The notes beneath the pieces were generated by a model. The model was given only the letters and a program-made list of their open reading frames with translations. It was not told where the DNA came from and searched no databases. Positions 13,293-43,894 of a DNA stretch of 43,894 bases are shown piece after piece (the stretch's first letter is position 1; each line of letters opens with the position of its first letter). The position numbers were made by a program, and so were the translations under genes. This stretch comes from Halioglobus sp. (GTDB taxonomy: Bacteria > Pseudomonadota > Gammaproteobacteria > Pseudomonadales > Halieaceae), in NCBI GenBank assembly GCA_002699145.1, contig PABK01000025.1, forward strand, positions 1-43,894, given 5' to 3'.

Positions 13293-16200
13293 TTACTTTT
13301 CGATGCTGGAGAGGTCGTCAGTGACCTCTGTGAGCAGTTTCGGTCGTCCGACCCCCCAGCCCTGCAGGTAGTCGACGCCTATTTCCTGCAGCTTGGCTAC
13401 AATTTCATCGTTTTCCACTGATTCGGCGATGGTTTCCTGGCCGAGGAAGTGGGCCAAGTCGTTGATCGAGCGCGCCATGGCGTAATCGTTGCGGTTTTTG
13501 TGAATGCCGGTGACGAAACTGCCGTCGATCTTGACATAGTCGACTGGTAGTTCGCGCAGGTAGTTGTGGCTCGCCAAACCGGTGCCGAAATCATCGATGG
13601 AGAACTTGCAGCCGATATTGCGGAAAGCGCGTACGAAGTCCGCCGCCTTGACCAGGTTTGAGATGGTCCCTGTCTCTGTAATCTCGAAGCACAGGCGGCT
13701 GGTGCCGACACCGAACTCGGATATCTGTTCCAGCAGGTAGTCGAGGAAGCCGTCATCGGTCACGCTGGCGCCGGACAGGTTGATGGCCAGGTTGGGTACG
13801 ACTTTCTGCGCGTCCATCAGCTGGCTGATCCAGGTGAACGCCTCGCGCACTACCCAGCGGTCGACCAGGATCATAAAACCGTAACGCTCGGCGGACTGGA
13901 TGAATTCCTCCGGGGAGGACAGTGAGCCATCCTTGTTTTTCAGGCCGAGCAACAGTTCGTAGTGCAGGCTGGTGGATTCGCCGCTGACCGCGCTCTGCAC
14001 GATCGGCTGCGCGCGCAGCACGAAGCGGTCGGTAGCCAGGGCCTCCTCCAGGTTCTGGCGCGTGCGCGTTTTCTCCGAGCGGTACTGGCTGACGTCGTTG
14101 TGGTCTTCCTCGAAGCGCGCAACCCGGTTGCGCCCGGCCTGTTTCGCCATTTGCATGGCGTCGCGCGCCGCTTCCAGCCGTTGCTCTACTCCCGGGCTGT
14201 GCTCGACGATGGCGGCAACGCCGATCGATACGGTGAAAGTGACATTTTCGCCGTCGATGTCCATGCTGCTGGCTTCGATATCGCCGCGAACTTTCTCCGC
14301 GAATTCCTCGGCCGACTCTATGGACCGGTCGATCAGCAAGATAGCGAACTCGTCGCCCTTGATGCGCGCTGAGGAGATCTTCTTGCCGTGCAGTTGCGCC
14401 AGCAGCCTGGCGAATTCCAGCAGCACCTGGTCGCCGCTGATGCGATCGTAGACCTCGTTGACCAGGTTGAACTGGTCGATATTCAGGTACAACACCGCGT
14501 GTTGCGAGCGCTTGTGCCGGGCGTGGCGCAGTGCGCGCTGCATCTGGTCGAGGAAGGTCTCGCGGTTGATCAGCCGGGTGAGGGAGTCGTGATTGCGTGC
14601 GAAGCTCAGCGTTTTCTGTACGTGTTCGAGTGTCTGGTACATGCTCTGGTCGACCACTGACAGCTTGTCGGCGGGCGCCGGCGGCTGTACGCCGCGACTG
14701 AGCTGTCGGGCCAGGCGAATGGCGCTGAGGTCGGCGATCTTCTGGCCGCGCTCGTTGACGAAAATATAGCGGTCGCGGTTCGGGCTGATCCAGGCCAGTT
14801 GCATGCGTTTTTTCTTGCCGGAACTGTCGCGGTAGGTCAACCAGTCGTCTTTTTCCAGCTGCTCCACGCGCTTGACCCAGCGGCGCAGTCGCGGCAGGTC
14901 CTCGATGCGCGCGCGTACCTGATCCGGGTCTGGCTCGCCGTCGGACAGGGAGTCCCCGACCTCGATGGTTTCCACGTCCATTGTGCCGGCCATGATGTCG
15001 CGCAACTTGTCCAGCACCGCCTCGTGGGCCATGTTGGTGGGCAGCGCCGTGGCGATCTGTGTGCCGATAAGGTCCAGCAGGGGCTCGGCCTCGAGCCCGC
15101 TCTGCACGGAATCGTCGTCGTCCGCGCCGGACTGGCGTTCCTTCAGCCACGCGTTCAGCACTTCCAGGTTGTTCAGTTGCTCCAGCCAGGTGGCGCTGTT
15201 GGCGCCCTCCTTGACGTGTGTCAGCACCAGGGCATCGCGCCAGCCGCTCTCGATCAGCTCCACCAGGACCTTCGGCGCGGTTTGCTCCGGTAGCTTCTCG
15301 CGGATGAGCCTGCCCACCTCGCGCCGCGCCTGGGCCAGTTTTTCCTGGCCTTCCTGTGTGCGCACCACGCGCTCGATATTGCGCGACAGGGCCCGTTCCT
15401 GTTGCGCCACCAGGCGGTCGATTTTCTCCAGCGCCGTGTCGAAGACCGTCGCGTCGGTCTCGTAGTCGTCGATAATCTCGTCGACGATCGCATTGATGCG
15501 CCCTTCCAGCGCCTTGTTGGGGAAGTTCGCGGAGGTCGCCAGTTGCGACAGTTTGTCGACGACCGCGCGCGCGGCGTGGCTGTGGTCCACAAAGAAGCGC
15601 GGGTCCATCAGGGCCAGTTTCGCCAGCGGAATCTGCAGGCTGCTCAGCGCCGGTTTCAGCTCCCGGGTGACATCCAGTTGCGACTTGATGGTGCCGAACA
15701 GGTTGTCGACCATATCGAGCTGGTTCAGGCTCTCCGCGGTCAGGCCGCTGGAATCCTTCAGGTCGCCGATGTTGTCGCGGTTGCTCGCCAGGTAGGCGCG
15801 CAGGGAGTCGCTGGCCTGTACCTCCTCGCGGGCGCGTTGGTCGCGTTGCAGTGCGCCCAGTGCGCGCGCGATGGCCTGGGCGTCGGCGAGTCGGCTCTGG
15901 TCGACCTCCGAGCTGGCGACGGTGGCCCCCTCCCAGGTGCTGCTCAGGGCGGCGCCGCTGTCCAGCGTGCCCTCCTCGAGCAGCCCCTCCGCCTCGCGCT
16001 TGAAGTTGAGCGCGTCGACCACGGACTTGTACAGGCTGGCGGGGGTAAAGCGGCCCATCGCGCCGGTGAGCTGTTCGCCCAGGTGCTGGTGGAGCTGGTC
16101 CAGCTCACTGGCCGCCCGGTGCGTCGCTGGCGAGGCGCCGCCCGCCCCGGTCGAGCCCGCGCCGCCTGGCGGCGCGGCCGGCTGCGGCGCGGCCGGCGGC

Positions 16201-17399
16201 GGCTCGCGCCGCGGCCTGGGCGCGGGACGATCCACCTCGCCGCGGCGCTTGAGCAGTGAACCTTTGGTGCGAATTTCTTCTTCCACCTGCGGCAGTACAT
16301 CGTGCCGTGCGAGCAGGGCGTTGAGCTCGCCGTAGTAGCCGTCCAGTTGCGCAATAAATTGCCCGGAGAAAAACTCGAAGATATGCGACAGGACCTCCGC
16401 GGGAACCTCCGCGCCGAGCAGGGCGCCCTGGAACGCGCGGCAGAGCTGGCGCACGTGCAGGGGGTTGCGCAGGGTGTTCGGGTCCACGCCGACCAGTTGC
16501 GCCATCCGTACGGTCAGCGCTTCCAGGGTGATCCGGTGCTGGTCCTCGCCGGCGTTGACCATGCGGTCGATGAGCAGGAAGTCCTCGAATTCCTGCAGGT
16601 CCACCAGGTCCAGTTCGTCGGGGCTGCCGATGTTGTATTGCCACAGCTGGTCATCCGCCCGCTCCGGGGTGAGGTCGCCGAAGTACCCGTTCACCTGGTC
16701 GAGAAACTGTTGGGCGATGCCGCCGGCGGCGTGGCGAATGATGATCGCCGAGTCGTAGTGCAGGTTCTCGCCGTCTTTCTTCTGCCGCATGCGCGGCGAC
16801 AGCTCCAGCAGGTGGTCTGTCAGGTGCAGCAGGAACGGTTTCAGCGTGGTCGCCAGGTGTTCGACGCCGCGCGCCTGCAGTTCCTCCAGCAGCTTTGCGT
16901 ACTCTGCGCTGACCGGCGCGGCCGGGCTGTGCGTGTCGCTGCGGGGCTTGTCTGTGCCTGTGGCCGGCTTTTCCCCGGCGTTGGCCGGCTGCGGGGCGGG
17001 CGCCTGCCCGGCGGAGGGGGAGGCGGGCGCCTGGGGTGCAGCGGCTGGCGCGGCACTACCGCTCGCGTGCGTACCCATCAACTCGCGCAGGCGGCGGGCG
17101 TTATCCGCGTCCGCGTCGGCGAATTTCAGCGTGATACATTCACGGTAGACATGGGCGATATACACGCGCACGCCGTCCGGATCGCTGTCGGCGGCGACCT
17201 CCGGGGGGAGGCTCAGGCTGGCATAGGCGCCGACGTCGACCGCGATTTCCGCATCACCGTCGTGCGGGTCCTCCAGGGACAGGTTATCGAGTTCAAGGCT
17301 GCCGTCCAGCATGGGGGAGAGCTGCCCGCGGAGCCGGAGGGCATTGTCCAGTACCAGAATGGCCGGGAGTTGCCCCGGCTGTGTTTGCGAGTTGGACAT
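13293..17399 (-). CDS. DUF1631-GGDEF-EAL protein (c-di-GMP signalling)
   Basis: A 1368-residue protein. Residues about 1-110 form a PilZ-like or unknown domain, followed by an Ala/Pro-rich linker. A DUF1631 (PF07793-type) region fills about 180-800, with a second Pro/Ala-rich linker near 390-430. A GGDEF domain follows with the signature altered to KGDEF (1014-1018) and no RxxD inhibitory site just before it. The C-terminal EAL domain has ELL in place of EAL (E1148 retained), plus ITET, IDDFGTG, VKID, ESVEN and LQGWGVGRP, so the main catalytic acidic residues of a c-di-GMP phosphodiesterase are present. I infer a c-di-GMP hydrolase or sensor with a degenerate cyclase. No membrane segment is evident. 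Confidence 0.9.
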   Translation of the reverse strand: MSNSQTQPGQLPAILVLDNALRLRGQLSPMLDGSLELDNLSLEDPHDGDAEIAVDVGAYASLSLPPEVAADSDPDGVRVYIAHVYRECITLKFADADADNARRLRELMGTHASGSAAPAAAPQAPASPSAGQAPAPQPANAGEKPATGTDKPRSDTHSPAAPVSAEYAKLLEELQARGVEHLATTLKPFLLHLTDHLLELSPRMRQKKDGENLHYDSAIIIRHAAGGIAQQFLDQVNGYFGDLTPERADDQLWQYNIGSPDELDLVDLQEFEDFLLIDRMVNAGEDQHRITLEALTVRMAQLVGVDPNTLRNPLHVRQLCRAFQGALLGAEVPAEVLSHIFEFFSGQFIAQLDGYYGELNALLARHDVLPQVEEEIRTKGSLLKRRGEVDRPAPRPRREPPPAAPQPAAPPGGAGSTGAGGASPATHRAASELDQLHQHLGEQLTGAMGRFTPASLYKSVVDALNFKREAEGLLEEGTLDSGAALSSTWEGATVASSEVDQSRLADAQAIARALGALQRDQRAREEVQASDSLRAYLASNRDNIGDLKDSSGLTAESLNQLDMVDNLFGTIKSQLDVTRELKPALSSLQIPLAKLALMDPRFFVDHSHAARAVVDKLSQLATSANFPNKALEGRINAIVDEIIDDYETDATVFDTALEKIDRLVAQQERALSRNIERVVRTQEGQEKLAQARREVGRLIREKLPEQTAPKVLVELIESGWRDALVLTHVKEGANSATWLEQLNNLEVLNAWLKERQSGADDDDSVQSGLEAEPLLDLIGTQIATALPTNMAHEAVLDKLRDIMAGTMDVETIEVGDSLSDGEPDPDQVRARIEDLPRLRRWVKRVEQLEKDDWLTYRDSSGKKKRMQLAWISPNRDRYIFVNERGQKIADLSAIRLARQLSRGVQPPAPADKLSVVDQSMYQTLEHVQKTLSFARNHDSLTRLINRETFLDQMQRALRHARHKRSQHAVLYLNIDQFNLVNEVYDRISGDQVLLEFARLLAQLHGKKISSARIKGDEFAILLIDRSIESAEEFAEKVRGDIEASSMDIDGENVTFTVSIGVAAIVEHSPGVEQRLEAARDAMQMAKQAGRNRVARFEEDHNDVSQYRSEKTRTRQNLEEALATDRFVLRAQPIVQSAVSGESTSLHYELLLGLKNKDGSLSSPEEFIQSAERYGFMILVDRWVVREAFTWISQLMDAQKVVPNLAINLSGASVTDDGFLDYLLEQISEFGVGTSRLCFEITETGTISNLVKAADFVRAFRNIGCKFSIDDFGTGLASHNYLRELPVDYVKIDGSFVTGIHKNRNDYAMARSINDLAHFLGQETIAESVENDEIVAKLQEIGVDYLQGWGVGRPKLLTEVTDDLSSIEK

Positions 17400-17541: not shown

Positions 17542-18318
17542 TTACTCCCCGGCGTTCGCTGCGGACAGGAAGGCGGGTTTTTCACCGCCGCCGTGCACGG
17601 CGAAGTTCGTGCCGCTGACGTAGGAGGCCAGATCGGAGCCCAGGAACAGGCAGGCGTTGCCGACATCCTCGGGGACGGCCATGCGTCCCAGGGGGATGGT
17701 GGCGCCGACAGCGGCTATACCCTCGTCGTCGCCGTAATGCAGGTGCGCCTGTTCGGTGACGGTAAGTCCCACTACCAGCGCATTGACCCGCACCTTCGGC
17801 CCCCATTCGACCGCCAGCGAGGTGCCGAGATTGACCAGGCCGGCCTTGGCCGCGCCGTAGGCCGCGGTGCCCGGGGAGGGCCGGATGGTGCTGACACTGG
17901 CGATATTGATGATGCTGCCGCCGTCCTCCTGTTCCTGCATGACGCGATTCGCTACCTGGCTGAAATTCAGCGGGGCAATGAGATTGAGCCGGATGATGGC
18001 TTCCGAGAAGCGCGGCGAGGCTGTGGCCGCGTCGGCGTGGGGCGCGCCGCCGGCATTGTTGACCAGTACGTCCAGGCGTCCGTGGCGGGACACGGTCTCT
18101 TCCACACAGGCCTCGATCTGCGCGTAGTCACGCACGTCGCAGGCGATGAAATGCGCCTCGCGGTCGTCGACCCGCGGCAGTTCCTCCGGCGCGCTGCGCC
18201 CGCAGATGACGACCTGGGCCCCGGCCTCCAGGAATCGCAGGGTAATGCCGCGGCCGACACCTTTGCCGCCCCCGGTGACGATGACGACCTTGCCGCTATA
18301 ATCCAGCGGGTTGTTCAT
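17542..18318 (-). CDS. Short-chain dehydrogenase/reductase
   Basis: A 258-residue classical SDR oxidoreductase with the cofactor motif TGGGKGVG (15-22), NNAG, the catalytic serine region INIASVS, and Y154-x3-K158. A GAGGAG Shine-Dalgarno sequence precedes the ATG. The substrate cannot be told from sequence; NAD(P) is the expected cofactor. It is transcribed away from the F420 operon with a 205-bp shared intergenic region, which may only reflect position. A link to F420 metabolism is possible but not shown. Confidence 0.9.
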   Translation of the reverse strand: MNNPLDYSGKVVIVTGGGKGVGRGITLRFLEAGAQVVICGRSAPEELPRVDDREAHFIACDVRDYAQIEACVEETVSRHGRLDVLVNNAGGAPHADAATASPRFSEAIIRLNLIAPLNFSQVANRVMQEQEDGGSIINIASVSTIRPSPGTAAYGAAKAGLVNLGTSLAVEWGPKVRVNALVVGLTVTEQAHLHYGDDEGIAAVGATIPLGRMAVPEDVGNACLFLGSDLASYVSGTNFAVHGGGEKPAFLSAANAGE

Positions 18319-18350: not shown

Positions 18351-18379
18351 TTGTTATCGGCGAGTGATTTACATAAGAT
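18351..18379 (+). promoter_or_regulatory. Putative promoter of the F420 operon
   Basis: TTGTTA (18351-18356) and TAAGAT (18374-18379) are 17 bp apart, each matching four of six consensus bases. They lie about 145 bases upstream of the first F420 gene. No operator palindrome was recognised in the rest of the 205-bp divergent region. Confidence 0.4.
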
Positions 18380-18523: not shown

Positions 18524-19207
18524 ATGTCGACAACGGAATTGCCCGTGCTCGCCATTCTGGGCGGCACCGGGGACCTCGGAACGGGCCTGGCCCGGCGCTG
18601 GGCACAGGCGGGGTACGAGGTGATCATCGGATCCCGTACGCTGGAAAAGGCCCAGGCCGCCGTGGCCGACCTGCGCGAGGTGATGTCCGAGCGTGGTCTG
18701 GCGGAAATCTCGGTGCAGGCGCAGGAGAATCTCGCCGCCGCCGAAGCCGCCGACATCGTGGCGCTGACGGTGCCATTCAGTCACCAGGCCAGCACGCTGG
18801 AACTGGTCAAGCCAGCCCTGCAGGGCAAGATCCTCATCGATGTCACCGTGCCCCTGGTGCCGCCCAAGGTGGCGCGGGTGCAGTTGCCGCAGCAGGGCAG
18901 CGCCGGCCAGATCGCGCAGGAACTGCTCGGTGACGATGTGGCCGTGGTCTCCGCGTTTCAGAACGTGGCGGCGGCGCACCTGCAGGAAGGCCACGGCATC
19001 GAGTGCGACGTGCTGGTCTGCGGCAACAAGCGCGAGGCGCGCGAGGCCGTGATCACGCTGGTGGAAGCCGCCGGCATGCGCGGCTTTCACGCCGGCATGA
19101 TCGACAACGCGGCCGCTGCAGAGGCGCTCACCTCGGTGCTCATCGTTATCAACAAGCAGTACAAGTGTCACGCGGGCATCAAGATCTCCGGCCTCGGCGA
19201 GGACTGA
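18524..19207 (+). CDS. npdG: NADPH-dependent F420 reductase
   Basis: A 227-residue Rossmann-fold enzyme that exchanges hydride between NADPH and F420. The N-terminal ILGGTGDLGTGLARRWA and VIIGSR segments form the NADP-binding fold; the middle has LTVPFSHQAS and IDVTVPLVPP, and the C-terminus YKCHAGIKISGL matches this family (NpdG/Fno). It heads the F420 operon, 13 bp before cofE, and supplies reduced F420 for any dependent reductases elsewhere in the genome. The direction of catalysis in vivo is inferred as NADPH to F420. Confidence 0.92.
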   Translation: MSTTELPVLAILGGTGDLGTGLARRWAQAGYEVIIGSRTLEKAQAAVADLREVMSERGLAEISVQAQENLAAAEAADIVALTVPFSHQASTLELVKPALQGKILIDVTVPLVPPKVARVQLPQQGSAGQIAQELLGDDVAVVSAFQNVAAAHLQEGHGIECDVLVCGNKREAREAVITLVEAAGMRGFHAGMIDNAAAAEALTSVLIVINKQYKCHAGIKISGLGED

Positions 19208-19220
19208 CCGGCCCGCGGCC

Positions 19221-19988
19221 ATGACGGCGCAACTGCAGTTGATTCCCCTGGACGGGTTGCCCCGGGTCGAGCCCGGCGACGACCTGGCGCGGCTCGTTGC
19301 CGCCGCGCTGGGGGAGGGCGCCCTGGCCCTGGAAGAGGGCGACGTGCTGGTGGTGGCGCAGAAAGTGGTGTCCAAGGCCGAGGGGCGCTACGCGCGCCTG
19401 GCCGAGGTGCGGGTCGGCGACGAGGCGACGGCGCTGGCCGCGCGGGCCGAGAAGGATCCGCGCCTGGTGCAACTGATCCTGGATGAGAGCCGCGAGGTGC
19501 TGCGCGTGCGCCCCGGCGTCATCATCGTCGAGCATCGCAACGGCTACGTGCACGCCAATGCCGGTATCGACCGTTCCAATATTGACAGCGACCCGGAAGA
19601 CCCGCGAGTGCTGCTGCTGCCCGTCGACCCGGACGCGTCCGCCCGGCGACTGCGCGCGTCGCTGGCCGCGCTGACCGGCGTCAGCGTGCAGGTCATCATC
19701 AACGACAGCTTCGGGCGCGCCTGGCGCAATGGCACCGTCGGCGTGGCCATCGGCTGCGCGGGCCTCGAACCGTTGCGCAACCAGGTCGGCGAACAGGACC
19801 TGTTCGGCAACGTGCTGGAGGTCACCGAGCCGGCCGTGGCCGATGAACTGGCCGCGGCGGCGTCCCTGGTGATGGGACAGGCGGCCGAGGGCTGTCCGGT
19901 GGTGCTGGTGCGCGGCGCGCAACTGGCCGGCGGTGCGGGCGGCTCCGCCGCGCTGCTGCGCGAGCGCGGCCAGGACCTGTTCCGCTGA
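19221..19988 (+). CDS. cofE: F420-0:gamma-L-glutamate ligase CofE
   Basis: A 255-residue protein that adds glutamate residues to F420-0 using GTP. Family markers include VVAQKVVSKAEGR near the N-terminus, HANAGIDRSNID in the middle and NDSFGRAWRNGTVGVAIG. It is a stand-alone CofE of archaeal type length: the C-terminal FMN-binding reductase domain present in actinobacterial FbiB is missing. Its stop codon overlaps the cofD start by one base. The number of glutamates added cannot be predicted. Confidence 0.94.
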   Translation: MTAQLQLIPLDGLPRVEPGDDLARLVAAALGEGALALEEGDVLVVAQKVVSKAEGRYARLAEVRVGDEATALAARAEKDPRLVQLILDESREVLRVRPGVIIVEHRNGYVHANAGIDRSNIDSDPEDPRVLLLPVDPDASARRLRASLAALTGVSVQVIINDSFGRAWRNGTVGVAIGCAGLEPLRNQVGEQDLFGNVLEVTEPAVADELAAAASLVMGQAAEGCPVVLVRGAQLAGGAGGSAALLRERGQDLFR

Positions 19989-20956
19989 TGCCCGCGGAAG
20001 CGCGCAACGTACTGGCCCTGACCGGGGGCGTCGGCGGAGCGAAGCTGGCCCTGGGCCTGGCCGATTGCCTGGCGCCCGAGGCGCTGCACCTGGTGGCCAA
20101 CACCGGCGACGACTTCGAGCACCTGGGCCTGCACATCAGTCCCGACATCGACACCCTCATTTATACCCTGGCCGGGTTGTCCAACCCGCAGCAGGGCTGG
20201 GGCCTGGATGGCGAGACCTTCCACGCGCTGGAGGCCCTGGGCAGGCTGGGCGGCGAGACCTGGTTCCGCCTGGGCGACCGCGACCTGGCCACACACCTGT
20301 GGCGCAGTTGCCAACTGGCCGCCGGCCAGACCCTGCAGGAGGTCACCGCCGCGCTGGCGCGGTCGCTGGGTGTGGCGCAGCAGGTGTATCCCATGTGTAA
20401 CGAGGCGGTGCGCACCAACGTGCACTGCGAGGGGCGCGTGCTGCCTTTCCAGCGCTACTTCGTCGGCGAGCGCTGCGCACCGCCGGTGAGCGGTTTCGCC
20501 TTCGACGGTATCGAGCGCGCCGCGCCGGTCCCGGCGTTGCGGCAACTGCTCGACAGGGGGGCGTTCGCCCAGGTGGTGATCTGCCCCTCCAACCCGTTCG
20601 TCAGTATCGACCCGATCCTGCAGGTCCCGGGCCTGTGGCAGGCGCTGCGCGAGCAGCCAGCCCCGGTGACCCTGGTGTCGCCGATCGTCGCCGGTGCGGC
20701 GCTGAAGGGCCCGGCGGCCAAGATGATGGCGGAACTGGGGGTGCCGGCATCCGCGACCGGGGTGGCGCAGCACTACGCGCGGCGCTATCCCGGCCTGCTG
20801 GACCACTTCGTAATTGACCACAGTGACGGTACACTGGCCGCCGACATCGCCGCACTGGGTATGCAGGCGGCGGTGACATCGACGGTTATGACGACGCGCG
20901 AGCACAAGCGCGCGCTGGCGCAGTTCGTGCTGCGCCTGGTTGAAAGTGAGAGATAG
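19988..20956 (+). CDS. cofD: FO 2-phospho-L-lactate transferase CofD/FbiA
   Basis: A 322-residue enzyme that transfers the phospholactyl-type (or related) moiety from the guanylylated donor made by CofC to FO, giving F420-0 or a derivative. The N-terminal TGGVGGAKLALGL and VANTGDDFEHLGLHISPDIDT are diagnostic of CofD, as is the ICPSNPFVSIDPIL segment. The gene overlaps cofE and is followed 4 bp later by cofC, consistent with one transcript. Confidence 0.95.
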   Translation: MPAEARNVLALTGGVGGAKLALGLADCLAPEALHLVANTGDDFEHLGLHISPDIDTLIYTLAGLSNPQQGWGLDGETFHALEALGRLGGETWFRLGDRDLATHLWRSCQLAAGQTLQEVTAALARSLGVAQQVYPMCNEAVRTNVHCEGRVLPFQRYFVGERCAPPVSGFAFDGIERAAPVPALRQLLDRGAFAQVVICPSNPFVSIDPILQVPGLWQALREQPAPVTLVSPIVAGAALKGPAAKMMAELGVPASATGVAQHYARRYPGLLDHFVIDHSDGTLAADIAALGMQAAVTSTVMTTREHKRALAQFVLRLVESER

Positions 20957-20960
20957 GACC

Positions 20961-21692
20961 ATGGCCACAGCCCTGTTGCCACTGAAGGACCTGGTCGAGG
21001 CGAAATCGCGCCTGGCCGGGCTGTTGCGACCCTCCGAGCGGCGCGCCCTGGCCCAGGCCATGGCCGAGGATGTGCTGGCGGTGCTGCGCGCCCACCCGCG
21101 GCTGCAGCGGGTGGTGCTGGTGTCCGATGACCCGGGCGCACGCCTGCTGGCGCATGAATACGATGCGCAGTGCTGGTCGGAGCGGGGGCTGGGCTGTCGC
21201 GGGCTCAACCCGGTGCTGCAGGCGGCGGCGGGGCGGCTGGCGCAGGCCGCGGGCGATGACGTGATGCTGGTGTTGCACGCAGACCTGCCGCTGCTCGGCG
21301 GCGCGGACATCGACGCCGCCCTGGACGCCTGCACAGGGCGCCAGGTCCTGGTCGTGGCGCCGGACCGCCACGGTCGCGGCACCAACCTGCTCGCCTTCCA
21401 CAACAGCGTCGTCCCGGCGTTCTGCTTTGGCGCGGACAGCTGCGCCGCGCACCAGCGCCGGGCCCGGGAACAGGGCCTGGCGGCACAACTCCTGCACCGC
21501 CCCGGCCTCGCCCTGGACCTGGATGAACCCGCGGACCTGGCGGCCCTGCTGGCGCAGGCGCCGGACCGTCACGGCGGCCGCAGCCGCGCCCTGTTGCAGG
21601 GTGCGGAACTGGGCGCACGCTTGCGCGCCGCGCTCGCGTCACTGCCCCTGGAGGCGGTCGCGCCCGCCACCGGCGCGGAGCAGGGCTCGTGA
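20961..21692 (+). CDS. cofC: 2-phospho-L-lactate guanylyltransferase CofC
   Basis: A 243-residue nucleotidyltransferase that activates a phosphorylated three-carbon acid with GTP. MATALLPLKDLVEAKSRLAG matches the CofC N-terminus (LPLK...KSRLA), and the VLHADLPLL and DRHGRGTNLLAF motifs follow. Start 20961 is chosen because of the motif and a nearby GATAGGA; an in-frame ATG seven codons upstream lies across the cofD stop. A tail of about 40 residues extends past the usual core. Whether it uses 2-phospholactate, phosphoenolpyruvate or 3-phosphoglycerate cannot be read from sequence. It overlaps the FO synthase gene by 4 bp. Confidence 0.9.
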   Translation: MATALLPLKDLVEAKSRLAGLLRPSERRALAQAMAEDVLAVLRAHPRLQRVVLVSDDPGARLLAHEYDAQCWSERGLGCRGLNPVLQAAAGRLAQAAGDDVMLVLHADLPLLGGADIDAALDACTGRQVLVVAPDRHGRGTNLLAFHNSVVPAFCFGADSCAAHQRRAREQGLAAQLLHRPGLALDLDEPADLAALLAQAPDRHGGRSRALLQGAELGARLRAALASLPLEAVAPATGAEQGS

Positions 21693-24172
21693 ACGACCTG
21701 GCGCCACTGGCGCGGAAACTGCACGCCGGCGACCTCCCCACGCCGGGTGAGGCCCTGGCCCTGGCCGACTGTGAGGATACCGCCGCGCTGGCCGCGCTGG
21801 CCGGTTCACTGCGCGATGCCGGACATGGCAATGTGGTGACCTATTCGCGCAAGGTGTTCATCCCGCTGACCCACCTGTGCCGGGATGTCTGTCACTACTG
21901 CACGTTCGCGCGCACGCCGAAACGCATAGAGCAAGCCTACCTGCCTGTCGAGGACGTGCTGGCGCTGTGTCGCGACGGCGCGGCGATGGGCTGCCAGGAA
22001 GCGCTGTTTACCCTGGGCGAACGGCCGGAGCTGCGCTATAGCGCGGCGCGCGACGCGCTGCGGGAGCTGGGGTTTGCCAGCACGCTGCACTACGTGGCCG
22101 AGGTCGCCGCGCGCGTGCTGGACGAAACCGGCCTGCTGCCGCACATCAACGCCGGTTGCATGAGCGACGAGGAAGTGGCGCTGCTGCGCCCGGTGAGCGC
22201 CTCCATGGGCATCATGCTGGAATCCGCCTCCGCGCGCCTGTGTGAGAAGGGCATGCCGCACTACGGCTCGCCCGACAAGGACCCGCAGCGGCGCCTGGCG
22301 ACCCTGGAAAGCGCCGGCGCCGCGCGCGTGCCCTTTACCTCCGGCATCCTCATCGGCATTGGCGAGACGCGGCGCGAGCGCATCGAATCGCTGCTGGCGC
22401 TGCGCGCCTCGCACCAGCGGCACGGCCACCTGCAGGAAGTCATCGTACAGAATTTTCGCGCCAAGCCGGGCACCCTGATGGCCGCGGCCCCCGAGCCGGA
22501 CCTGGAGGAGCTGCTGTGGACCATCGCCGTGACCCGTCTGGTATTCGGCGCGCAGATGAATATCCAGGCGCCGCCTAACCTCAGTCCCGGTGTGCTCGGA
22601 CAGCTGGTGGCGGCGGGGATCAACGACTGGGGCGGGGTGTCGCCCCTGACGCCGGACCACGTCAACCCCGAGGCGCCCTGGCCACACCTGGACCGGCTCG
22701 CGGCGGAAACAGCCGCCGCCGGTAAATGGCTGGAGCAACGGCTGACGCTGTACCCGGCCTATGTGCGCGCCGGGGAGCGGTGGCTGGACGACGCGGTATT
22801 GCCGGCGGTGCTGCGGCAGGCCGACGCGGCCGGCCTGGCTCGCCGCGACGACTGGACCCCGGGGACCGGGGCAGATATTCCCTCAATCGAAGCGGGCCTG
22901 CTCGCCGGCGGCGCCCCGACGCAGCCGGTGGACCCGCAACTCGCCGAGATCGTCGCGCGCTGCGAAGCCGGGGCGTCATTACACGAACGGGACATTACGC
23001 GGCTATTCGCCAGTCGCGGGCCAGAGTTCACCTACGTCGCCGCGGCGGCTGACCGGCTGCGCCGCCAGGTGAATGGCGACCAGGTCAGTTACGTGATCAA
23101 CCGCAACATCAACTACACCAACGTGTGCTACTTCAAGTGCCAGTTCTGCGCTTTCTCCAAGGGCAAGGCGAGCGAGAACCTGCGCGGTCGTCCCTACGAT
23201 ATCAGCGGCGAGGAGATCGCCCGGCGCTGCGTCGAGGCCTGGCAGCGCGGCGCCACCGAGGTCTGCATGCAGGGCGGCATTCACCCCGACTATACCGGCC
23301 AGACCTACCTCGATATCCTCGAGACGGTGCGCGCGGCGACGCCGGATATGCATATCCACGCCTTCTCGCCGCTGGAAGTGTGGCAGGGCGCGGCGACCCT
23401 GGGTATCGACATCGAGACCTTCCTGCTGCGCCTGCGCGCGGCCGGGCTGAACACCTTGCCGGGCACCGCCGCCGAGGTGCTGCACGACGAGGTGCGCGCG
23501 CGGCTGTGCCCGGACAAGCTCAACAGCGAGCAGTGGCTGCAGGTGATGGAGGCGGCGCACCGCGTCGGCCTGCGCACCACCGCCACGGTGATGTACGGGC
23601 ATATCGAGCAGCCGCGCCACTGGGCGGCGCACCTGCTGCGCATCCGCGAACTGCAGCAGCGCAGCGGCGGCTTTACCGAGTTCGTGCCATTGCCTTTCGT
23701 GCACATGGAGGCGCCCATGTACCTCAAGGGGCGCTCCCGCCGCGGCCCGACCTTTCGCGAGGCGGTGCTGATGCACGCGGTGGCGCGGCTGGCGCTGCAC
23801 GGCCTGATCGACAACATCCAGGCCTCCTGGGTGAAAATGGGGCCGGAGGGCATTGCGCTGTGCCTGAACGCCGGCGCCAACGACCTCGGCGGTACGTTGA
23901 TGAACGAGAGCATCACCCGCGCCGCTGGTTCCGGTCACGGCCAGGAATGGGCGCCGGCGCGCATGGAGACGTTCATCGCCGGCCTGGGTCGGCAGCCGCG
24001 GCTGCGCACCACGCTCTACGCCGATGCGCCCGAGGAACGCCGCCGCGCGGCGCGGCGGGAGATTCCCCTGGCGCAGGTCCACAACGGCCCCGCGGCCCGG
24101 CGGCAGGTGGACAAACGCGCGGCGCCGGCCGACCTGTATGAACAGGTGGTCCTGCAGGCCGCCTGCAACTGA
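21689..24172 (+). CDS. fbiC: Fused FO synthase CofG-CofH (FbiC)
   Basis: An 827-residue bifunctional radical SAM protein that makes the deazaflavin FO from tyrosine and a ribityl pyrimidine. The N-terminal CofG half carries C64-x3-C68-x2-C71 (CRDVCHYC). The C-terminal CofH half carries C480-x3-C484-x2-C487 (CYFKCQFC). Archaea encode the halves separately; the fused form is the actinobacterial and general bacterial type. It starts with GTG in the overlap with the cofC stop (GTGA). It ends 10 bp before ung. Confidence 0.95.
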
Positions 24173-24182
24173 GGCGGCGCCC

Positions 24183-24878
24183 GTGGCCCTCGCGCGCTCC
24201 GTGCAACTCGAGCCGGGCTGGCTGCAGGCCCTGGGCGACCAGTTCGAGCAACCCTACATGCAGGAACTGCGCGCCTTCCTGCTCGCGCAAAAGCGCGCAG
24301 GCAAGCGCATCTTCCCGCCCGGGGAGGAGTTCTTCAACGCCTTCAATCACACCCCGCTGGAACGGGTCAAGGTGGTTATCCTCGGCCAGGATCCCTACCA
24401 CGGCGAGGGCCAGGCACACGGCCTGTGCTTCTCGGTCAGGCCGGGGGTCGCCGTGCCGCCCTCGCTGCAGAACATCTACCGCGAAATCCACGACGAACTG
24501 GGTCTGCCGGTGCCGCGCCACGGCCACCTGACCGCCTGGGCCGACCAGGGCGTGTTGCTGCTCAACAGCGTGTTGTCGGTGGAGTGCGCGCAGGCGGCCT
24601 CGCACCGGGGCAAGGGCTGGGAGCGCTTTACCGACCAGGTCATACAGGTGATCAACGAGCGGCGCGAGGGCGTGGTGTTCATGCTCTGGGGCAGCTACGC
24701 CCAGCGCAAGGGCGCGATAATCGACGCGCGCCGCCACTGCGTGCTGAAAGCGCCCCACCCGTCGCCGCTCAGCGCGCATCGCGGCTTCTTCGGCTGCGGC
24801 CACTTCAAGGCGGCGAATGACTACCTGCGCTCGCGCGGCGAGGAGGGCATTGATTGGCGGTTGCCCGACACCCCCTGA
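24183..24878 (+). CDS. ung: Uracil-DNA glycosylase
   Basis: A 231-residue family 1 enzyme that removes uracil from DNA. The water-activating motif [14 protein letters not shown] contains D70, and the leucine-loop motif [11 protein letters not shown] is at the C-terminus. The start is taken as GTG at 24183, with a GGCGG sequence upstream, because the frame before it is shadow sequence of the FO synthase gene. It lies 10 bp after that gene and could be a passenger in the F420 transcript. It is convergent with ygfZ, with only 6 bp between. Confidence 0.94.
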
Positions 24879-43091: not shown

Positions 43092-43894
43092 ATGGCAAAC
43101 GCCAGCAACCGAGCACCCGCCAGGCGTGCCGAAACCGCTCGCAAAATCGCTGACGCAAAGTGCCAAAATACTGCCCCCGACGGTCGACGCGTGCACCCAG
43201 GCAACGATAACGATAAAGACACAAGAGATACAACAGCCTTCCATTTTTCCAGGACACCTGGCTATCCAGCCGTCGTTTGCACACGGCAATGCTCGCGGCG
43301 CCACCCACAGGTGGAGAGCGTTGTCCCGGCACGTGAAGCAGCACATACCGCTGCATTCGAGTACAACAACAAATACAAATTCGAACAGGCATTGGCTGCC
43401 CGGTTCGTTGCCGGGCTCGAGAGACGTCCTGCCCGCGCGGGCAGGCGCATCCGGTCCAGGGGACCATGGGCCCACACCGCAGCCCCGCAAACTATAAACA
43501 GGCTCGTAGCCACCGCGTCCCGAACGGCGCCGCGGCTATCGGGACCACACCAGAATCCAGGTCCCGGGCGGCTGCCCGGAAGCTGGAAGCCAGGGCCAGA
43601 AAGGCGACCGTCCAGGTCGCCAGAAAAGCCAAGTCCACGGTGAAAACGAGGGGAAGTCCAAGGTGAAAGCAAAAACCAAGAGTAAGAGTAAAGCGAAAGC
43701 CAAGCCCAAGGCGAAAAAGGCCAAGGTGAAAGCCAAAAAGGCCAAGGTGAAAGCCAAGCCCAAGGCAAAAGCCAAGCCCAAGGCAAAGGCCAAGCCCAAG
43801 GCAAAAGCCAAGCGTAAGGTGAAAGCCAAGGCCAAGCCGAAGGCGAAAGCCAAGCGTAAGGTGAAAGCCAAGGCCAAGCCGAAGGCGAAAGCCA
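43092..43894 (+). pseudogene. Lysine-rich histone H1-like repeat protein, frame broken, runs off window
   Basis: A GGAG sequence 8 bases before ATG 43092 opens a frame beginning MANASNRAPARRAETARK. From about 43540 Lys/Ala-rich histone-like sequence appears in another frame (AAARKLEARARKATVQ, then VARKAKSTVK), which stops at 43666. It then continues in a third frame as KVKAKTKSKSKAKAKPKAKK to the window end. One extra G in the G run at 43650-43653 would join the last two frames. Either the gene is frameshifted (mutation or sequence error), or a separate coding region starts at GTG 43663, which overlaps the previous stop (GTGA) and has AGGGGA ahead of it. Lys/Ala/Pro repeat proteins of this kind (AlgP- or H1-like) bind DNA. 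The N-terminal part is not recognised. Confidence 0.5.
43663..43894 (+). repeat. Tandem Lys-Ala coding repeats
   Basis: Short units based on AAGGCCAAGGTGAAAGCC and AAGCCCAAGGCAAAAGCC repeat through this segment. The last two are perfect 42-bp copies (43810-43851 and 43852-43893). The repeats encode K-A/V/P-K patterns and continue past the window edge. Confidence 0.85.

What the first reader, a model, noticed from the sequence alone, without database searches (positions are those of the whole stretch)
18524..24172. Complete F420 biosynthesis and reduction operon in a gammaproteobacterial genome
F420 is best known from archaea and actinobacteria. Here npdG, cofE, cofD, cofC and a fused cofG-cofH form a tight operon with gaps or overlaps of 1-13 bp, between otherwise ordinary genes. 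The fused FO synthase resembles the bacterial type, suggesting acquisition from another bacterial group. The organism should make and use F420.
Basis: partly seen in the sequence, partly recalled or inferred. Interest (0 to 1): 0.72.

Follow-up and report, generated by a model that had tools for sequence, protein, structure and literature searches.

The report
F420 coenzyme operon in marine gammaproteobacteria
This bacterium carries an intact-looking set of genes for making and recharging the unusual redox coenzyme F420, and the set proves to be an old, widely shared trait of its family of bacteria rather than a recent import.

Summary
npdG, cofE, cofD, cofC and a fused cofG-cofH (fbiC) lie on one strand with spacings of +13, -1, +4 and -4 bp; all five pass curated cut-offs and fbiC keeps both radical-SAM motifs. 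The host family is Halieaceae. Making and using F420 is well supported by inference: 21 of 30 scanned luciferase-like proteins pass F420-named cut-offs, and Ddn-like genes occur in 66 of 89 family genomes with cofD and 2 of 51 without. Recent acquisition is not supported: cofD matches in 89 of 140 family genomes, with one main clade and shared synteny. CofC has 2-phospholactate/PEP-type residues, not the 3PG-F420 signature. No known dehydro-F420 reductase passed its cut-off, so linker supply or saturation is unresolved. Unexpectedly, a clade of lone fbiC genes sits inside the Halieaceae fbiC tree; 16 of 20 lone-fbiC genomes searched have no cofD match and look FO-only. Familiar enzymes, little-described distribution: new member of a known kind.

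The parts
18524..19207 (+). npdG (fno): NADPH:F420 oxidoreductase
   Evidence: TIGR01915 200.7 bits over cut-off 149.8; best PDB match 5n2i, reduced F420:NADP oxidoreductase, E 2.2e-41
19221..19988 (+). cofE: F420-0:gamma-glutamyl ligase, stand-alone (255 aa, no nitroreductase domain)
   Evidence: TIGR01916 290.5 bits over cut-off 180.65; the two-domain model PRK13294 is not reached (226.1 of 304) and matches only its positions 11-243 of 449
19988..20956 (+). cofD: transferase that joins the activated linker to FO
   Evidence: TIGR01819 262.9 bits over cut-off 257.45; PDB matches 3c3d CofD and 6uvx FbiA
20961..21692 (+). cofC: guanylyltransferase that activates the linker acid
   Evidence: TIGR03552 150.5 bits over cut-off 105; Gly at the diagnostic S162/G163 position, Leu at M91/L92 (positions matched by eye on the alignments)
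21689..24172 (+). fbiC: fused CofG-CofH FO synthase, GTG start
   Evidence: NF006687 1161 bits over cut-off 1018; radical-SAM motifs CRDVCHYC at 21878 and CYFKCQFC at 23126
18351..18379 (+). predicted promoter of the operon: TTGTTA-N17-TAAGAT
   Evidence: TTG-N3-N17-TA-N2-AT occurs upstream of npdG in 11 of 11 Halieaceae intergenic regions (113-146 nt before the npdG start in ten, 47 nt in L058) and in 1 of 7 Spongiibacteraceae-type regions; single-base shuffles give 0.42 of 18. Pattern chosen after seeing the alignment; the generic scan did not list it
17542..18318 (-). divergent short-chain dehydrogenase of family PRK07856; conserved neighbour, role unknown
   Evidence: NF005893 398.3 bits over cut-off 255; divergent beside npdG in 17 of 51 npdG-bearing loci, where 19 others carry a luciferase-like gene
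24183..24878 (+). ung: uracil-DNA glycosylase, perhaps co-transcribed (by position only)
   Evidence: NF003589 356.9 bits over cut-off 223 for the frame from 24162; in-frame GTG 10 bp after fbiC; follows fbiC in 9 of 10 other Halieaceae loci, not in L080

Best explanation
This is an F420 biosynthesis and reduction operon that is old in Halieaceae and mostly inherited with its neighbourhood. FbiC makes FO from tyrosine and a riboflavin precursor; CofC activates a C3 phospho-acid (2-phospholactate or phosphoenolpyruvate rather than 3-phosphoglycerate) with GTP; CofD transfers it to FO; CofE adds the glutamate tail; NpdG then reduces F420 with NADPH. The F420H2 serves a large set of luciferase-like and Ddn-like reductases, perhaps in breakdown of organic compounds. 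Shown here: gene content, motifs, residues, signs of selection, distribution, co-occurrence. Inferred from knowledge of the families: every reaction. Unresolved: where 2-phospholactate would come from, or what would reduce dehydro-F420.
For: All five genes over curated cut-offs. Gene set with divergent SDR shared by 10 other Halieaceae and 7 Spongiibacteraceae-type loci (one search had not shown cofC in L051 and L072, one search finds all five genes in all 17). CofD matches in 89 of 140 family genomes, 74 over cut-off. Window CofD inside a 35-row family-only clade, 95*. Own genome: 31 PF00296 matches, 21 of 30 scanned over cut-offs of F420-named models; 4 PF04075 matches (0 of 14 control genomes had any), 3 over the TIGR00026 cut-off. 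In the family, PF04075 in 66 of 89 cofD+ and 2 of 51 cofD- genomes; luciferase-like counts (capped at 14 per genome) have medians 14 and 0. A luciferase-like gene lies divergent to npdG in 19 of 51 operon loci; the two members scanned pass F420-named cut-offs.
Against: No F420 measurement exists here for any of these organisms. Dehydro-F420 reductase: best match 34.7 bits against a cut-off of 249.55; no control genome passed that cut-off either, so a divergent FbiE could be missed. CofD passes its cut-off narrowly. PF00296 is not specific for F420: 10 of 14 control genomes have it. The co-occurrence is confounded by kinship and genome size; one small-genome genus makes up about 57 of the 140 genomes. 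23 of 89 cofD+ genomes have no PF04075 match. Members of F420-named luciferase-like models are largely untested (recalled). 6 of 41 family CofD rows fall outside the main family clade, so some exchange happened.
Confidence: 0.85

Rival explanations
1. Recent horizontal acquisition from another bacterial group.
For: Only 14 of 369 class-wide genomes, the host included, carry CofD over cut-off; the operon stretch holds the most G+C-rich windows (0.69-0.72 against 0.61-0.71 elsewhere); F420 genes lie on plasmids in Sinorhizobium, Aromatoleum and Paracoccus; 6 of 41 family CofD rows lie outside the main family clade.
Against: Family-wide presence, family-only CofD clade around the window, FbiC nearest to other Halieaceae, shared neighbours, no mobile gene among the flanking genes that were scanned, no tRNA in the window.
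Confidence: 0.05
2. The operon makes 3PG-F420, as in Mycetohabitans.
For: CofC's best solved relative by sequence is the 3-phosphoglycerate enzyme 7p97 (78.5 bits).
Against: The diagnostic residue S162 of PMC8764529 is Gly in the window; 0 of 127 aligned CofC rows carry Ser or Thr there (100 Gly, 25 Asp, 1 Ala, 1 Asn), and the M91 position is Leu in the window.
Confidence: 0.07
3. The genes are relics or make FO only, with no F420 use.
For: A related fbiC clade does occur alone, in genomes without a cofD match.
Against: All five frames intact with dN/dS 0.07-0.29 against L054; strong co-occurrence with candidate user enzymes.
Confidence: 0.05

Closest known systems
Mycobacterial fbiC, fbiD, fbiA, fbiB system
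   Same: Fused FO synthase FbiC; CofC with Gly and Leu at the specificity positions, as in FbiD; CofD/FbiA homologue
   Different: cofE is stand-alone; no match over cut-off to the FbiB C-terminal reductase; all genes in one operon with npdG; no Fgd-type model over cut-off among 30 luciferase-like proteins scanned
Mycetohabitans rhizoxinica 3PG-F420 pathway (PMC8764529)
   Same: Gram-negative host; CofC, CofD, CofE and FbiC
   Different: The window's CofC lacks the S162 and M91 residues; by a passage of the review PMC8498797 that host lacks homologues of known F420-dependent enzymes, whereas this one has many candidates
Alpha- and betaproteobacterial clusters: Sinorhizobium meliloti pSymA (L202), Paracoccus alcaliphilus plasmid (L207), Aromatoleum aromaticum EbN1 plasmid 2 (L203)
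   Same: npdG, cofC, cofD and FO synthase together; cofE listed in L203 and L207 (not in the incomplete table of L202); a luciferase-like or PNPOx-like gene nearby
   Different: Other gene orders, on plasmids; Paracoccus has separate cofG and cofH
Lone fbiC clade of gammaproteobacterial MAGs (one titled Pseudohongiella)
   Same: FbiC 67-75% identical to the window's and nested among Halieaceae FbiC
   Different: No npdG, cofE, cofD or cofC in the DNA held around it; 16 of 16 of the clade's genomes searched have no cofD match

Membership tests
Bacterial F420 biosynthesis pathway | FO synthase with both radical-SAM halves | tested here: met
   NF006687, TIGR03550, TIGR03551 over cut-offs; two CxxxCxxC motifs
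Bacterial F420 biosynthesis pathway | CofC and CofD for linker activation and transfer | tested here: met
   TIGR03552 and TIGR01819 over cut-offs; equivalents of FbiD K17, D116, S166, D188, D190 kept in the window
Bacterial F420 biosynthesis pathway | Glutamyl ligase CofE | tested here: met
   TIGR01916 over cut-off
Bacterial F420 biosynthesis pathway | F420 present in cells | not testable with these tools
   needs LC-MS
PEP route (mycobacteria, Thermomicrobium) | Dehydro-F420 reductase: FbiB C-terminal domain or FbiE | tested here: not met
   TIGR03553 best 34.7 bits against 249.55 in the host genome; no control genome passed the cut-off, so a divergent FbiE is not excluded. No relative of the host's best nitroreductase in the DNA held of 59 operon loci
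3PG-F420 route (Mycetohabitans) | Ser/Thr at CofC position 162 | tested here: not met
   Gly in the window, 0 of 127 rows with Ser or Thr
F420-using organism | F420 reductase (Fno/NpdG or Fgd) | tested here: met
   NpdG over cut-off
F420-using organism | Candidate F420H2-dependent enzymes | tested here: met
   21 of 30 luciferase-like proteins and 3 of 4 Ddn-like proteins over curated cut-offs; one of the 31 luciferase-like matches was not scanned
Recently transferred island | Window's genes nested in another phylum or class, or mobile genes at the edges | tested here: not met
   (FbiC and CofD trees only; CofC, CofE and NpdG trees were not built)

The most novel reading that the evidence does not exclude
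Halieaceae finish F420 by a step not yet described in bacteria: their CofC is of the 2-phospholactate/PEP type, yet no known dehydro-F420 reductase was found, and no enzyme that makes 2-phospholactate is known. Either an unrelated reductase or a bacterial 2-phospholactate maker exists, or the working cofactor is dehydro-F420 itself.
Probability: 0.33. Interest if true: 0.58.

Novelty: new member of a known kind. Interest (0 to 1): 0.42.

Why it matters
F420 is usually discussed for archaea, Actinobacteria and a few other groups. The 2021 review (passages seen) names biochemical evidence for Alpha- and Betaproteobacteria, and the word Gammaproteobacteria does not occur in its main text as held. 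If this family, and parts of its order, make F420, then F420-dependent reductions may be a normal part of the metabolism of many marine heterotrophs. Named strains with the operon exist (Seongchinamella unica L051, Parahaliea maris L062), in which the open question of the linker (2-phospholactate or PEP, and which reductase) could be tested directly.

Tried and rejected
Recent transfer: rejected on distribution, two gene trees and synteny. 3PG-F420: rejected on CofC residues. RNA element or tRNA-linked island: no Rfam match at gathering thresholds and no tRNA in the window. Photolyase antenna as the role of lone fbiC: not settled; 13 of 16 FO-only genomes have a PF03441 match, but the one protein compared with the PDB (L229) is nearest to 4u63, which I recall as a class III photolyase with a folate antenna, so the antenna is undecided. 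A steroid-catabolism role for the luciferase-like genes: of ten neighbours scanned, some resemble acyl-CoA ligases and a thiolase-like protein, but no steroid-specific model reached its cut-off, so it is not claimed.

Literature, held library only: F420 with Halieaceae (0 papers); coenzyme F420 with OM60 (1 paper; its one OM60 is in a reference title); F420 with Pseudohongiella; F420 with Spongiibacter (listing only); FO synthase with Gammaproteobacteria (PMC9178010, seen by passages on other terms, and PMC11104420, whose single use of the word concerns a method for Pseudomonas putida); broader sets seen as listings. PMC8498797 was seen by passages; of PMC8764529 the outline, part 1 of 2 of the results, and passages. 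Ney et al. 2017 (recalled) is not held and may list gammaproteobacteria.
Full report
Observation. All pass the curated NCBIfam cut-offs for their function; CofD passes narrowly, 262.9 against 257.45 bits. FbiC keeps both radical-SAM motifs, and dN/dS estimates against the congener locus L054 are 0.07-0.29 (against L051 and L055 they are 0.09-0.54, the highest for CofC), so the genes look to be kept by selection. The gene ung begins about 10 bp after fbiC. A sigma-70-like element, TTGTTA-N17-TAAGAT at 18351-18379, lies upstream of npdG; the pattern TTG-N3-N17-TA-N2-AT occurs in 11 of 11 Halieaceae intergenic regions (113-146 nt before npdG in ten, 47 nt in L058) but in only 1 of 7 Spongiibacteraceae-type regions, against 0.42 of 18 in single-base shuffles. 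The pattern was picked after seeing the alignment, and the generic promoter scan did not list it.

Host. The window is contig C41 of a 5.2 Mb genome, 99.5% complete. Its family (f1) includes a contig of the same length and with an identical CofD as Parahaliea maris (L062 = G134) and one matching a Haliea MAG (L055 = G033), so I take it to be Halieaceae. L053, L054, L066 and L080 were assigned to the family in the same way (G034, G122, G042, G041). The placing of Litorivivens (L076) with Spongiibacteraceae is recalled.

Distribution. CofD (TIGR01819) matches in 89 of 140 family genomes, 74 over cut-off, 22 of 28 genera; order sample 95 of 293, 84 over cut-off; class sample 22 of 369, 14 over cut-off with the host; phylum sample 25 of 299, 5 over cut-off with the host. 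Most matches below cut-off in the class and phylum samples are stretches of 20-36 bits and are probably other CofD-like proteins.

History. In the CofD tree (134 rows, some of them the same genome twice; quick search) the window lies in a clade of 35 family rows (95*), inside a 76-row clade (87) that is mostly the order but also holds two rows of other orders, one alphaproteobacterial row and the Aromatoleum plasmid. Six of 41 family rows lie in that other part, four of them together, so exchange occurred. In the FbiC tree (85 rows) the window is beside other Halieaceae. The five genes with the divergent SDR are found in 10 other Halieaceae and 7 Spongiibacteraceae-type loci; ung, ygfZ, nadB and rpoE all follow in L053, L054 and L062 and in L097, a MAG of another family of the order. 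The operon is thus old in the family. A still older transfer into the order is open; trees of CofC, CofE and NpdG were not built.

Product. CofC carries Gly at the residue that PMC8764529 (part of the results and passages read) calls diagnostic for 3-phosphoglycerate when Ser; 0 of 127 aligned rows have Ser or Thr there (position matched by eye). That points to 2-phospholactate or PEP. By the review (passages) the PEP route needs a reductase. None reaches the FbiB C-terminal model in the host genome (34.7 of 249.55 bits), but no control genome passes it either, so the test may miss a divergent FbiE. A search of the DNA held of 59 operon loci with the host's best nitroreductase found nothing. 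The same paper says that CofC assays cannot tell 2-phospholactate from PEP in vivo.

Use. NpdG is closest to solved F420:NADP oxidoreductases. The genome has 31 PF00296 matches (this family also occurs in 10 of 14 control genomes); of 30 scanned, 21 pass cut-offs of F420-named models, 2 pass other luciferase-like models and 7 pass none. It has 4 PF04075 matches, 3 over the TIGR00026 cut-off; none of the 14 control genomes has one. In the family, PF04075 occurs in 66 of 89 cofD+ and 2 of 51 cofD- genomes (Fisher p 2.7e-17, not corrected for kinship); the two exceptions are incomplete genomes (89% and 60%). Luciferase-like counts, capped at 14 per genome by the search, have medians 14 and 0. In the small-genome genus g22, which I took to be handles G057-G113, 22 cofD+ genomes have 2-13 and 35 cofD- genomes 0-5. 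In 19 of 51 operon loci the divergent gene beside npdG belongs to one of two luciferase-like clusters, of which one member each was scanned and passes an F420-named cut-off; in 17 of 51, all Halieaceae or Spongiibacteraceae-type, it is the SDR; 15 have neither. The SDR therefore sits where a luciferase-like gene sits elsewhere, which hints at a link, not more.

Lone fbiC. Of 80 named fbiC loci, 21 have no other F420 gene in the DNA held; some of these loci are short. Of 20 whose genomes were searched, 16 have no cofD match and 4 have it elsewhere. Seventeen lone rows (the 16 and L056) form one group in the tree (93), nested with nine Halieaceae rows (100*), with two more Halieaceae rows next to them (91). 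On a 43-row set under a mixture model, holding the 11 Halieaceae rows together is 45 log units worse, p-AU 0.0068 (quick search). The simplest reading is one transfer of fbiC alone out of Halieaceae or kin. This assumes that the lone-fbiC genomes are not Halieaceae themselves, which I could check for one only by its title (L073, Pseudohongiella); if others are, loss of the remaining genes would do as well. None of the 16 FO-only genomes has npdG over cut-off, though some have weaker matches up to 75 bits; 13 of 16 have a photolyase. FO as a light antenna is a reasonable guess, not shown. Most are MAGs and may be incomplete.

Verdict. Real, intact-looking, ordinary in enzymes, and little described in distribution in the papers I could search.

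Noticed in passing
L057, L059-L061, L063-L065, L067-L069, L071, L073-L075, L079, L086: Lone fbiC genes in 16 gammaproteobacterial genomes (mostly MAGs, one titled Pseudohongiella) without a cofD match, nested inside the Halieaceae fbiC tree: probable FO-only organisms that received or kept fbiC alone.
   Followed up: partly
L059-L061, L063-L065 and others, just downstream of lone fbiC: A recurrent downstream set in the 20 lone loci compared: an NAD(P)-binding protein (PF13460 in the one scanned) in 17, a protein without Pfam match in the one scanned in 16, and a CDP-alcohol phosphatidyltransferase-like protein in 15; link with FO unknown.
   Followed up: partly
window 17542-18318: PRK07856-family SDR divergent from the operon in 17 of 51 loci, in the place of a luciferase-like gene found there in 19 others.
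   Followed up: partly
window 13293-17399: Large DUF1631-GGDEF-EAL protein next to the SDR, with a similar gene beside the SDR in 8 of 10 other Halieaceae loci.
   Followed up: no
window 43693-43894: Tandem repeat of lysine/alanine-type codons (units of 6 to 42 bp) running to the contig end, like histone H1-type or AlgP-type repeat proteins (recalled); it may explain the assembly break.
   Followed up: no
L061, L119, L097, L111: MAG records titled Klebsiella pneumoniae (L061, L119), Verrucomicrobiaceae (L097) and Candidatus Kuenenia (L111) whose F420 genes group with gammaproteobacterial or alphaproteobacterial rows; L097 matches a genome (G535) of the window's own order: probably mislabelled bins.
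   Followed up: partly
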